Positions 2,849 to 4,679 of a stretch of DNA of 64,000 nucleotides are shown here, piece by piece. Source of the DNA: an uncultured Sphingomonadaceae bacterium. GTDB taxonomy: Bacteria; Pseudomonadota; Alphaproteobacteria; Sphingomonadales; Sphingomonadaceae. The notes below the pieces were generated by a model that was not told the DNA's origin, ran no database searches, and saw only the letters and a list, made by a program, of their open reading frames with translations. How positions within the stretch are numbered: position 1 is the stretch's first letter; each line of letters opens with the position of its first letter. Made by a program: the position numbers and the translations under genes. The stretch covers positions 186,001 through 250,000 of the forward strand of contig CAJXSN010000002.1 of assembly GCA_913060895.1 (NCBI GenBank), given 5' to 3'.

Positions 2849-3202
2849 ATGCGCGAGTTAGCAAGTGTGAACAATGCCGATAAAGATTTGATGGGTTGGT
2901 CAGCGATTGTTTGGATACAGTGCTTTACCTTGGCGTTGGGGATGGTTGCTGCGAACTACATTTCCGCGCCGCTCGGTTTGCTGATTTTTGCAATCGACCT
3001 CGCTCTGATCGCAACCGCCTACTTGACTGATTGGCGCTATCGTTGGCGGTCGACGGTGACGCTGACGGGTGTCTTCGTTATGCATCTCGCCGTCTTTTTC
3101 AAACCCGATGATCAACCAACCGTAAGCCTGCCAATCGCTATAATTGCTATGATGATCTGGATTATTTCTCTCTTCATCCCTCGCTCGTCGCCCCGGACTT
3201 GA
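2849..3202 (+). CDS. Small hypothetical integral membrane protein
   Basis: The 117-aa product has about four hydrophobic segments (roughly residues 17-33, 38-58, 70-84 and 93-111) separated by short basic loops such as DWRYRWRS, so it is very likely an inner-membrane protein. I do not recognise a family. The gene is transcribed away from topA. The last residues, SSPRT, and the TGA stop are encoded inside a dispersed palindromic repeat (3186-3216), so the natural C-terminus may have been replaced when the repeat arrived. No convincing ribosome binding site precedes the ATG at 2849; an in-frame ATG at 2891 (MGWSAIVW) is an alternative start. Confidence 0.6.
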   Translation: MRELASVNNADKDLMGWSAIVWIQCFTLALGMVAANYISAPLGLLIFAIDLALIATAYLTDWRYRWRSTVTLTGVFVMHLAVFFKPDDQPTVSLPIAIIAMMIWIISLFIPRSSPRT

Positions 3203-3216
3203 TCCGGGGTCTCGCT
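3186..3216 (+). repeat. Palindromic repeat, left copy beside the GIY-YIG gene
   Basis: The core CCCCGGACTTGATCCGGGG (3191-3209) is a 7-bp stem with a 5-nt loop. Including flanks, 28 of 31 positions match the reverse complement of the copy at 3535-3565. It lies 7 nt past the GIY-YIG stop codon and contains the stop codon of the upstream membrane-protein gene. Related CCCCGGA-TCCGGGG palindromes are common intergenic repeats in alphaproteobacteria. Confidence 0.85.
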
Positions 3217-3223
3217 TGTCTTT

Positions 3224-3514
3224 TCAACCGTTGAAGCCATCGAATAAATCCCGCCATTCCGGGTTGGCCTTTTCGATCAACTCCAACTTCCAATCGCGAC
3301 GCCAGCGTTTCAGGCGTTTCTCGTGAGCGATGGCCAGCTCGATATTATCCGCGCTTTCGGCCCAAACTAGGCGCGTTAGATTATGCTCGGCGCAAAAATT
3401 GGATCCTTTGCCCTCACGGTGTTGGGTGACACGGGCGGCAAGGTCTGCGGTTACGCCGGTGTAGAGTGTGCCTCTGTAGCGGTTGGTCATGATATAGACC
3501 CAGCCGCCTGTCAT
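3224..3514 (-). CDS. GIY-YIG nuclease superfamily protein (YhbQ/UPF0213-like)
   Basis: The 96-aa single-domain protein has the GIY-YIG signature as VYI (residues 6-8) and YTG (18-20), then a likely catalytic Arg in LAARVTQH (residue 28) and the conserved Glu in AIAHEKRLKRW (residue 65). All core active-site elements are present, so it may be a functional metal-dependent endonuclease. The family also includes UvrC and homing endonucleases, but the role of these small stand-alone members is not established. The gene lies precisely between two inverted palindromic repeats, 7 nt on its 3' side and 20 nt on its 5' side, which suggests a mobile or repeat-associated unit. No strong ribosome binding site is visible. 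Confidence 0.9.
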   Translation of the reverse strand: MTGGWVYIMTNRYRGTLYTGVTADLAARVTQHREGKGSNFCAEHNLTRLVWAESADNIELAIAHEKRLKRWRRDWKLELIEKANPEWRDLFDGFNG

Positions 3515-3534
3515 CGGGTGTTGTGCCGGAAAGT

Positions 3535-3565
3535 AGCGGGGCCCCGGATCAAGTCCGGGGTGACG
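3535..3565 (-). repeat. Palindromic repeat, right (inverted) copy beside the GIY-YIG gene
   Basis: The core CCCCGGATCAAGTCCGGGG (3542-3560) is the exact reverse complement of the left core, and the flanks extend the match to 28 of 31 positions. It starts 20 nt upstream of the GIY-YIG ATG and lies just beyond the dprA stop. The two copies therefore form terminal-inverted-repeat-like ends of a 380-bp unit. Confidence 0.85.
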
Positions 3566-3590: not shown

Positions 3591-4679
3591 TCATTTCAGT
3601 GACACCCTACCCGCAGCGTGCCGCTCCAGCCGCCCGGCGATTTCCAGTTCCAGCAGCGCCAGTTGCACCGCCGCAGCGCCCTCGTCCGACTGGCGGATGA
3701 GTTCGTCTACGGCCACGGGTGCGGTGGTCAGGAGGCTGGCGATGTCGGCGGGCTCGGCGTCTGCCATTTCCTCTGGCGCGTAGTCGTAGGTGGCCACTGG
3801 TTCGCGAAAGGTTGAGCGGGGCTGGCCGTCGAAGCCGCGCATCAGTTCGGCCACGTCCTCGGGTGATTGCACCAGCACTGCGCCTTCGCGGATCAGGTGG
3901 TTGCAGCCGTGGCTGCGTGCTTCCAGCGGGCTGCCAGGGATCGCCATGACTTCGCGCCCCGCCTCGCCCGCCAGCCGGGCGGTGATCAGGCTGCCGGATT
4001 TGACCGCTGCCTCCACCACCAGCGTGGCTCCTGCCAGCCCGGCGATGATCCTGTTGCGGCTGGGAAAGTGGCTGCCGCGCGGTTCGGTGCCCGGCGGCTG
4101 TTCTGCGATCAGCAGGCCTTCGCTGGCGATACGTTCCTGCAAATCGGTGTGCTGCGGCGGGTAGGCGATGTCGATCCCGCTGGCGATCACGCCGATGGTG
4201 CGGGGTAAAGCCCCCTCGTGACACGCCCCGTCTATGCCGCGTGCGAGGCCGGAGACGACCGTGAAGCCATCTGCCGACAAAGCTAGAGCAAAGTCCCGCG
4301 CCAGCTTCACCGCCGCCGCACTGGCGTTGCGCGCACCGACCATCGCAACGCAGGGCCCGCTCGCCAGCGACAGGTCGCCGCGATAGGTGATGATTGGCGG
4401 AGCGCCGCCTATTTCGGCCAGCAGTGCGGGATAATCGGGCTGGTCGTGGAACAGGTATTTCGCGCCTGCTTTGCGGACCTCCTCCACCTCTCGCTCAACC
4501 TTGGCGACAGGCGCTGCGCGGTAGCTGGACCCACCCTTCTTGCCGAGATCGGGCAGAGCCTCCAGCGCGGCCACCGCAGAGCCGAACCGGGCAAGCAATT
4601 GCGCATAGCTCACCGGCCCGATGTGCGGGCTTCGCAGCAAACGGATGCGTGCAAAGGCTTCGGCCTGCGACAAGCTCAC
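3591..4679 (-). CDS. dprA: DNA-processing protein DprA
   Basis: DprA binds incoming single-stranded DNA during natural transformation and loads RecA. The 362-aa protein has an N-terminal helix-hairpin region (about 1-60), the central Rossmann-like DprA domain with VGARNAS (114-120) and SGLARGID (143-150), and a C-terminal winged-helix domain (about 300-362) ending in LERHAAGRVSLK. Length and domain order are normal. The start overlaps the plsY stop by 4 nt, so the pair is probably one transcript. The 3' end runs to within 26 bp of a palindromic repeat. Other competence genes are not in this window, so natural transformability cannot be inferred. Confidence 0.95.
   Translation of the reverse strand: MSLSQAEAFARIRLLRSPHIGPVSYAQLLARFGSAVAALEALPDLGKKGGSSYRAAPVAKVEREVEEVRKAGAKYLFHDQPDYPALLAEIGGAPPIITYRGDLSLASGPCVAMVGARNASAAAVKLARDFALALSADGFTVVSGLARGIDGACHEGALPRTIGVIASGIDIAYPPQHTDLQERIASEGLLIAEQPPGTEPRGSHFPSRNRIIAGLAGATLVVEAAVKSGSLITARLAGEAGREVMAIPGSPLEARSHGCNHLIREGAVLVQSPEDVAELMRGFDGQPRSTFREPVATYDYAPEEMADAEPADIASLLTTAPVAVDELIRQSDEGAAAVQLALLELEIAGRLERHAAGRVSLK

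What the first reader, a model, noticed from the sequence alone, without database searches (positions are those of the whole stretch)
3186..3565. GIY-YIG gene bounded by inverted palindromic repeats as a compact unit
Two 31-nt copies of a palindromic repeat (28 of 31 positions alike when one is inverted) lie 7 nt beyond the stop and 20 nt before the start of a 96-codon GIY-YIG gene. The layout resembles a minimal element: nuclease between terminal inverted repeats, like REP-associated RAYT transposases but with a different nuclease fold. GIY-YIG proteins are known in homing endonucleases and some transposons; a link between these small YhbQ-like proteins and CCCCGGA-TCCGGGG intergenic repeats is, to my knowledge, not described.
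Basis: partly seen in the sequence, partly recalled or inferred. Interest (0 to 1): 0.62.

Follow-up and report, generated by a model that had tools for sequence, protein, structure and literature searches.

The report
Nuclease gene between DNA hairpin repeats
A tiny nuclease gene sits between two matching hairpin-forming DNA repeats, and the same pairing recurs in many related bacteria, which makes this nuclease a strong candidate for the missing enzyme that spreads a large family of bacterial palindromic repeats.

Summary
Two inverted 31-nt repeats (28/31 alike) flank a 96-codon GIY-YIG gene (window 3186-3216, 3224-3514, 3535-3565). Each repeat is a CGTC-headed palindrome (REP), heads outward. 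Its exact core occurs four times in the 2.73-Mb genome; two copies are these.

The arrangement is general. In 40 relatives, 44 of 55 close homologues lie between matched inverted repeats (0 of 117 displaced control windows). In 80 named loci, 65 do (1 of 449 controls). A second GIY-YIG subfamily carries a different repeat (12 of 14). Samples of other Alphaproteobacteria (27/55, 23/28) and other Proteobacteria (9/19) show it too.

A unit's two arms match each other better than arms of other loci, and repeat type follows the nuclease tree. Catalytic residues are conserved. The unit is absent at its locus in two congeners, is present/absent on plasmids, and is multicopy in Erythrobacter sanguineus.

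Best reading: a minimal mobile unit whose Slx1-like nuclease processes its own REPs, a counterpart of REP-RAYT built on another nuclease fold. CGTC REPs were published as apparently lacking a dedicated transposase. Cleavage and movement are inferred, not shown.

The parts
3186..3565 (-). Whole REP-bounded GIY-YIG unit, 380 bp
   Evidence: Family-wide DNA search: matches to the unit in other genera begin at about window 3184-3186 and end at 3565, while the window's flanks do not match there; 84 comparable units have a median size of 386 bp.
3186..3216 (+). Left REP, CGTC head at its outer end; stem-loop 3191-3209 (CCCCGGA-CTTGA-TCCGGGG)
3224..3514 (-). GIY-YIG nuclease gene, 96 aa, Y7/Y18/G20/R28/H32/E65 present
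   Evidence: AlphaFold2 model mean pLDDT 94.3.
3535..3565 (-). Right REP, CGTC head at its outer end; stem-loop 3542-3560
3591..4679 (-). dprA, neighbour upstream of the GIY-YIG gene; not part of the unit
   Evidence: Pfam DNA_processg_A, DprA_N and DprA_WH.
2849..3202 (+). 117-aa ORF without a Pfam hit; its stop codon lies inside the left REP loop; neighbour, not part of the unit

Best explanation
The 380-bp unit is a minimal REP-bounded mobile element. The GIY-YIG protein is the dedicated nuclease of the CGTC-headed REPs at its two ends and, by extension, of gene-less inverted REP pairs of the same kind elsewhere in these genomes. Proposed steps: (1) the palindromes, or the two paired arms, extrude as hairpins or a cruciform in single-stranded or supercoiled DNA; (2) the Slx1-like enzyme recognises its own stem-loop type and nicks near the head/stem base by metal-dependent hydrolysis; (3) the unit, or a shorter derivative keeping only the two REPs, is released or copied by host repair and joined elsewhere without a target-site duplication; (4) deletion between the two arms can leave one palindrome with a head at each end. 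Shown here: anatomy, generality, cognate match of arms, tracking of the nuclease tree, conserved active site, purifying selection, presence/absence at orthologous places. Inferred: binding, nicking, movement, and all of steps 1-4.
For: Flanking repeats: 44 of 55 and 12 of 14 loci in relatives versus 0 of 117 control windows; 65 of 80 named loci versus 1 of 449; class and phylum samples 27/55, 23/28, 3/3, 9/19 versus 0 of 192. Both arms have a perfect stem of at least 6 bp in 74 of 82 units versus 78 of 5573 control sites; a unit's two arms agree at 25.2 of 27 positions versus 19.3 with same-type arms of other loci, 0 of 2000 permutations as high. REP type needs 8 changes on the GIY tree versus 39.0 shuffled. 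Active-site residues invariant or nearly so; dN/dS 0.06-0.20 in 8 of 12 pairs. Absent at the orthologous gap in two congeners; inverted in another genus. Present/absent at one place among Sphingobium and among Azospirillum plasmids. Seven near-full copies in E. sanguineus. Genomes carrying a unit of the CTTGA loop type have more copies of the palindrome (5.0 versus 1.0, p 0.005). No Y1 transposase in the own genome. Fold nearest to Slx1, which acts on branched DNA.
Against: No binding, cutting or movement was tested. No target-site duplication, and no junction clean to the base was found. About a fifth of close homologues and roughly half outside the order lack matched repeats. On three of 15 plasmid loci the arms do not have outward heads: N. 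gonorrhoeae arms point inward, Planktothrix and Sinorhizobium K101 matches are not headed stem-loops. The E. sanguineus copies printed share an outer repeat, so something else may have moved them. GIY-YIG enzymes are not known to me to act alone as transposases. Only one copy is present in the own genome, and the link with copy number was made after the fact.
Confidence: 0.7

Rival explanations
1. REP-targeting parasite: the GIY-YIG gene is homing-like and inserts into existing REPs or REP pairs, without being the enzyme that spreads REPs.
For: At the Sphingobium place two plasmids have, instead of the unit, a single palindrome with CGTC heads at both ends, and E. sanguineus has a GIY-less copy of the same kind; either could be the pre-insertion state. 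GIY-YIG is a homing-endonuclease fold (I-TevI Z 5.5).
Against: The two arms of a unit are inverted, not direct, copies, and match each other rather than REPs at large; the repeat type follows the nuclease tree, as expected of a unit carrying its own ends.
Confidence: 0.14
2. Regulatory or passive flanks: REP hairpins accumulate as terminators or mRNA-stabilising ends around small genes, and the nuclease is an ordinary repair protein.
For: REPs are common intergenic hairpins in these genomes; the protein is related to Slx1/UvrC-type repair nucleases.
Against: Displaced gene-sized windows in the same loci almost never show matched arms (1/449, 0/117, 0/192). The other two GIY-YIG loci of the own genome examined (L007, L008) have none. 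The gene is patchy and at varied places, with several broken copies.
Confidence: 0.08
3. REPs and the unit are moved by another transposase (RAYT or unknown), and the GIY-YIG gene is cargo.
For: Di Nocera et al. left open mobilisation of CGTC repeats by RAYTs or other transposases (PMC3733652). E. sanguineus units are nested in an outer repeat.
Against: No PF01797 match in the own genome nor in 30 of the other 39 searched, including unit carriers G004, G008 and G021. None of the 13 Y1 loci found has headed stem-loops on both sides within 700 bp. Cargo would not explain why each nuclease clade has its own REP type.
Confidence: 0.08

Closest known systems
REPtron: RAYT (Y1/HUH tyrosine transposase) flanked by GTAG-headed REPs, with gene-less REP pairs (REPINs)
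   Same: A small nuclease gene between two inverted, headed palindromes; gene-less inverted REP pairs in the same genomes; no target-site duplication found.
   Different: The nuclease is GIY-YIG, not Y1; the head is CGTC, not GTAG; chemistry must differ, as GIY-YIG enzymes form no covalent tyrosine-DNA link (general knowledge).
CGTC-tagged REP superfamily (Di Nocera, De Gregorio, Rocco 2013, PMC3733652)
   Same: CGTC head, GC-rich stem, 5-nt loop, frequent inverted dimers, mainly Alphaproteobacteria.
   Different: That paper reports no associated transposase gene; here a nuclease gene lies between the two repeats. The tail of the window's copies is not CCA.
Slx1 / UPF0213 (YhbQ, YazA) GIY-YIG nucleases
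   Same: Fold and active-site pattern; best structural matches are Slx1 (Z 7.2) and 1zg2 (Z 6.6); YhbQ is named an Slx1-family member in PMC7017083 (passage).
   Different: No zinc finger or Slx4 partner region in 96 aa; encoded between REPs.
GIY-YIG homing endonucleases (I-TevI) and Penelope-like retroelements (recalled)
   Same: GIY-YIG nuclease serving a mobile element.
   Different: No intron, intein, DNA-binding tail or reverse transcriptase; the unit is one 96-aa domain between palindromes.

Membership tests
GIY-YIG nuclease superfamily | GIY-YIG domain with the catalytic Tyr, Arg and Glu | tested here: met
   PF01541 45 bits; Y7, Y18, G20, R28, E65 invariant in 24 and 61 sequences, H32 invariant or nearly so; fold match.
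CGTC REP superfamily | Unpaired CGTC (or TGTC/CCTC) head at one end of a palindrome | tested here: met
   Both window repeats; CGTC leads most heads in 84 related units.
CGTC REP superfamily | Stem of 8-9 bp, loop of 4-5 nt | tested here: inconclusive
   Loop 5 nt; perfect stem 7 bp, the eighth pair being G-T on the left and A-C on the right (definition).
CGTC REP superfamily | Short tail, mostly CCA | tested here: inconclusive
   The window's tails are not CCA; many relatives' are. The paper says 'most', not all.
CGTC REP superfamily | Repeated in the genome, often as inverted dimers | tested here: met
   Four exact cores in the own genome, one in a gene-less inverted pair; more in relatives. 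Low copy here.
REP-RAYT (REPtron) | Y1 (HUH) tyrosine transposase | tested here: not met
   Only PF01541 in the protein; no PF01797 in the own genome.
REP-RAYT (REPtron) | GTAG/GGAG head | tested here: not met
   Head is CGTC.
Classical insertion sequence | Target-site duplication | tested here: not met
   k=5-9: at most 1 of 83 units; k=4: 2 of 83 versus 0.1 shuffled.
GIY-YIG homing endonuclease | Located in an intron or intein, or interrupting its own conserved target gene | tested here: not met
   Window copy is intergenic between an ORF and dprA; annotated plasmid copies lie between genes (where annotated).
REP-mobilising enzyme (function) | Cuts REP DNA and moves REPs | not testable with these tools
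   Needs the bench tests listed.

The most novel reading that the evidence does not exclude
Small GIY-YIG proteins are a new class of transposition enzyme: structure-selective, non-covalent nucleases that co-evolve with, excise and spread hairpin-ended minimal elements. They are the long-missing source of the CGTC REPs of Proteobacteria, and at least one second GIY-YIG subfamily does the same for the CCGTTCGTCCTGAGCTTGTCGAAGG-type repeats.
Probability: 0.55. Interest if true: 0.93.

Novelty: new variant of a known kind. Interest (0 to 1): 0.84.

Why it matters
CGTC REPs are widespread short repeats of Alphaproteobacteria, and a 2013 survey concluded that they apparently lack a dedicated transposase (PMC3733652). 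A 96-aa nuclease encoded between cognate CGTC REPs in most of the relatives' loci examined gives a concrete enzyme to test. If it acts on them, REP-based mobility has arisen on two unrelated nuclease folds, and many proteins annotated only as 'GIY-YIG nuclease family protein' gain a function.

Tried and rejected
Target-site duplication: k=2-9 with end offsets 0-2 in 84 units; nothing beyond shuffles except 2 versus 0.1 at k=4 and 2 versus 0.6 at k=3. Clean empty site: the dprA-topA gap of the congeners is too diverged to give the junction; the Sphingobium and Azospirillum places differ by more than the unit, and the Sinorhizobium pair aligned poorly.

E. sanguineus as proof that the unit moves by itself: weakened, because the copies printed share an outer repeat. 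RAYT as mobiliser: rejected for the own genome. Phage carriage: no match in 50,697 phage records at E 1e-6. The loose palindrome (up to 3 mismatches) is not above chance in the window.

Limits. The threshold of 18 of 22 was set after seeing 33 loci. Loci are related to one another, and E. sanguineus copies and two loci fetched twice (L013=L076, L035=L100) inflate counts across calls; and the tree drop those two. One search gave 74 rows: 4 fragment rows were merged with neighbours, 1 (G019:C1:2440980) was not examined, 69 loci were scored; I split them into subfamilies A and B by E-value, later supported. One search kept the best 80 of 378. In one search one row at a contig end (L362) was dropped and rows shared with other samples were not recounted. 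In one search locus L286 was read at a wrong position; redone it scores 20 of 22. In one search, 8 of 12 pairs give 0.06-0.20; two had saturated dS, one was misaligned, and one nearly identical pair gave 0.61. The tree is a quick one on 93 columns with 66 of 125 inner branches open; 25 of its 128 rows have no REP type and are not counted.

Papers: PMC3733652 seen as abstract, sections 6, 14, 17 and passages; PMC12306157, PMC6006769 and PMC7017083 as passages only; all others as search listings. Searches with GIY-YIG plus REPIN, 'repetitive extragenic palindromic', RAYT, extragenic, or transposase/inverted repeats/intergenic, and for CGTC REPs and YhbQ/UPF0213/COG2827, listed no paper whose title or shown abstract links GIY-YIG proteins to REPs. 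Most listed papers were not opened; subscription papers and preprints are not held.

Full report
WHAT IS THERE. The window holds a 96-codon GIY-YIG ORF at 3224-3514 on the minus strand, between two inverted 31-nt repeats, 3186-3216 and 3535-3565, alike at 28 of 31 positions. Each repeat has a CGTC head at its outer end, a perfect 7-bp stem CCCCGGA/TCCGGGG and the loop CTTGA. A scan for headed perfect stem-loops finds only these two in 64 kb. The exact core occurs four times in the 2.73-Mb assembly. One of the other two copies belongs to a gene-less inverted REP pair (L001); the other (L004) shows one clear arm. Neighbours are topA (121-2745, named from the sequence), a 117-aa ORF without a Pfam hit (2849-3202) and dprA (3591-4679). 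The genome is probably of the Sphingomonadales, judging by the nearest named relatives.

IS IT GENERAL. In 40 relatives the protein search gave 74 rows, scored as 69 loci. On 130 bp either side I looked for the best 22-nt inverted match. Of 55 close homologues (subfamily A) 44 reach 18 of 22; of 14 more distant ones (subfamily B) 12 do; 0 of 117 displaced gene-sized windows do. Of 80 named loci (best 80 of 378) 65 reach 18, versus 1 of 449 windows (120-bp flanks). In a sample of 115 genomes of the class, 30 of 58 loci do, or 27 of 55 outside the window's family (20 of 33 genomes). In a sample of 200 genomes of the phylum, loci not already counted gave 23 of 28 in other Alphaproteobacteria, 3 of 3 in the own family and 9 of 19 in other Proteobacteria; controls 0 of 192. 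The rate falls with distance but stays far above controls. Of 32 plasmid records hit I fetched 15; 13 reach 18 (140-bp flanks), but in N. gonorrhoeae the heads point inward and in Planktothrix and Sinorhizobium K101 the matches are not headed stem-loops. The other two GIY-YIG loci of the own genome, L007 (in a 668-codon open frame) and L008, have no such repeats.

ANATOMY OF THE UNITS. Of 135 subfamily-A loci 84 have GTC heads at both outer ends. CGTCA is the commonest head (58 left, 52 right), median size is 386 bp (343-540), and there is no target-site duplication. Outside the heads the flanks are pyrimidine-rich, mirrored on the two sides. With two duplicates dropped, both arms have a perfect stem of at least 6 bp in 74 of 82, against 78 of 5573 control CGTC/TGTC sites. 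A DNA search of 149 genomes of the family shows several whole-unit matches that begin at about window 3184-3186 and end near 3565.

CO-VARIATION OF REPEAT AND ENZYME. Stems change in a compensated way between relatives (CCCCGGA, CCCCGGG, CCCCGTG). Three loop types were told apart in subfamily A by pattern. On a tree of 128 proteins they need 8 changes versus 39.0 in shuffles, 0 of 200 as low. Within a type, a unit's two arms agree at 25.2 of 27 positions versus 19.3 with arms of other loci; 0 of 2000 permutations reach this. Subfamily B carries another repeat, typically CCGTTCGTCCTGAGCTTGTCGAAGG. The own genome's copy of it is a pseudogene with an in-frame TAG, about 4.2 kb outside the window.

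THE ENZYME. Y7, Y18, G20, R28 and E65 are invariant, and H32 invariant or nearly so, in 24 and 61 sequences. dN/dS is 0.06-0.20 in 8 of 12 pairs. The AlphaFold2 model has mean pLDDT 94.3. Foldseek finds no PDB match at E 0.001 or better (best 1zg2, 2.1e-3); the second aligner ranks Slx1 (Z 7.2, rmsd 2.9, 90 aligned), UPF0213 1zg2 (Z 6.6, rmsd 5.2, 78 aligned), UvrC and I-TevI (Z 5.0-5.8) first. These Z-scores are moderate, but the first 17 rows are all GIY-YIG proteins. Slx1 acts on branched DNA, which would suit hairpin or cruciform substrates (inference).

MOBILITY. The unit is absent between dprA and topA in the two congeners examined (DprA 94% and 88% identical); another genus (G021) has a unit in the same gap, in the other orientation and next to topA. 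Seven Sphingobium megaplasmids carry the unit between fnrL and a regulator gene (three read in full, one of these with a frameshift). Four others lack it; two of these have instead one palindrome with CGTC heads at both ends. Azospirillum lipoferum has the gene between two REP pairs inside sufB-sufC; A. ramasamyi (matching pieces 98.1% identical), A. oryzae and strain B510 have no GIY-YIG gene there. E. sanguineus DSM 11032 has seven near-full copies at different places and further partial ones at contig ends; the copies printed share an outer repeat, so what moved them is unclear. Among 40 genomes the exact palindrome averages 5.0 copies beyond the unit's own in the 9 that carry a REP-bounded GIY of that loop type and 1.0 in the other 31 (one-sided Mann-Whitney p 0.005; split made after the fact).

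WHAT IT WORKS LIKE. The layout is that of a REPtron: a nuclease gene between inverted REPs, with gene-less REP pairs elsewhere. It is not a RAYT: it has no Y1 domain and no GTAG head, the own genome has no Y1 transposase, and none of 13 Y1 loci of relatives has headed stem-loops on both sides. Its repeats fit the CGTC superfamily of Di Nocera et al. 2013 by head and loop; stem length and tail fit less well. That paper says these elements seem to lack a dedicated transposase and marks no association with transposase genes. The searches listed under Tried and rejected showed no paper linking GIY-YIG proteins to REPs; they cover open-access PubMed Central only.

VERDICT. The association is established well beyond chance. 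That the GIY-YIG protein is the dedicated REP-processing and mobilising enzyme is the best-supported explanation (0.70); its chemistry and movement remain to be shown.

Noticed in passing
G000:C2:181475-181759 (L279, L005), about 4.2 kb left of the window: A second GIY-YIG subfamily copy, a pseudogene with an in-frame TAG, between inverted CCGTTCGTCCTGAGCTTGTCGAAGG repeats, next to an ORF that looks like glucose-6-phosphate isomerase (my reading). Relatives of this subfamily carry the same kind of repeat.
   Followed up: partly
2849-3202: A 117-aa ORF without a Pfam hit whose TGA stop lies in the CTTGA loop of the left REP, so the repeat supplies its stop.
   Followed up: no
L094, L104, L105, L111, L113, L117 and L301-L306, L310-L312 (E. 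sanguineus); L307-L309: GIY units nested inside another repeat, roughly GCTGCCGTTCAGCNATCGACCCC ... ACCACCCA, in three genomes; this outer repeat may be a separate mobile family.
   Followed up: partly
L202, L203 (Sphingobium TomTYG64, TomTYG74); L299 (E. sanguineus): Single palindromes with CGTC heads at both ends where related places carry a full GIY unit: a deletion footprint or the pre-insertion state.
   Followed up: partly
L192 (S. meliloti Ak57 pSymB, gltA-lpxB): A run of REP-bounded units, one holding only the C-terminal remnant of a GIY-YIG gene next to an intact one.
   Followed up: no
L195 (N. gonorrhoeae): A GIY-YIG homologue beside CGTCATTCCCGC...GCGGGAAT repeats (dRS3-like by description in PMC3733652), with heads pointing toward the gene.
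   Followed up: no
L198 (Azospirillum lipoferum AZO_p3, sufB-sufC): A GIY-YIG gene between two complete inverted REP pairs, interrupting a suf gene cluster that is uninterrupted in three relatives.
   Followed up: partly
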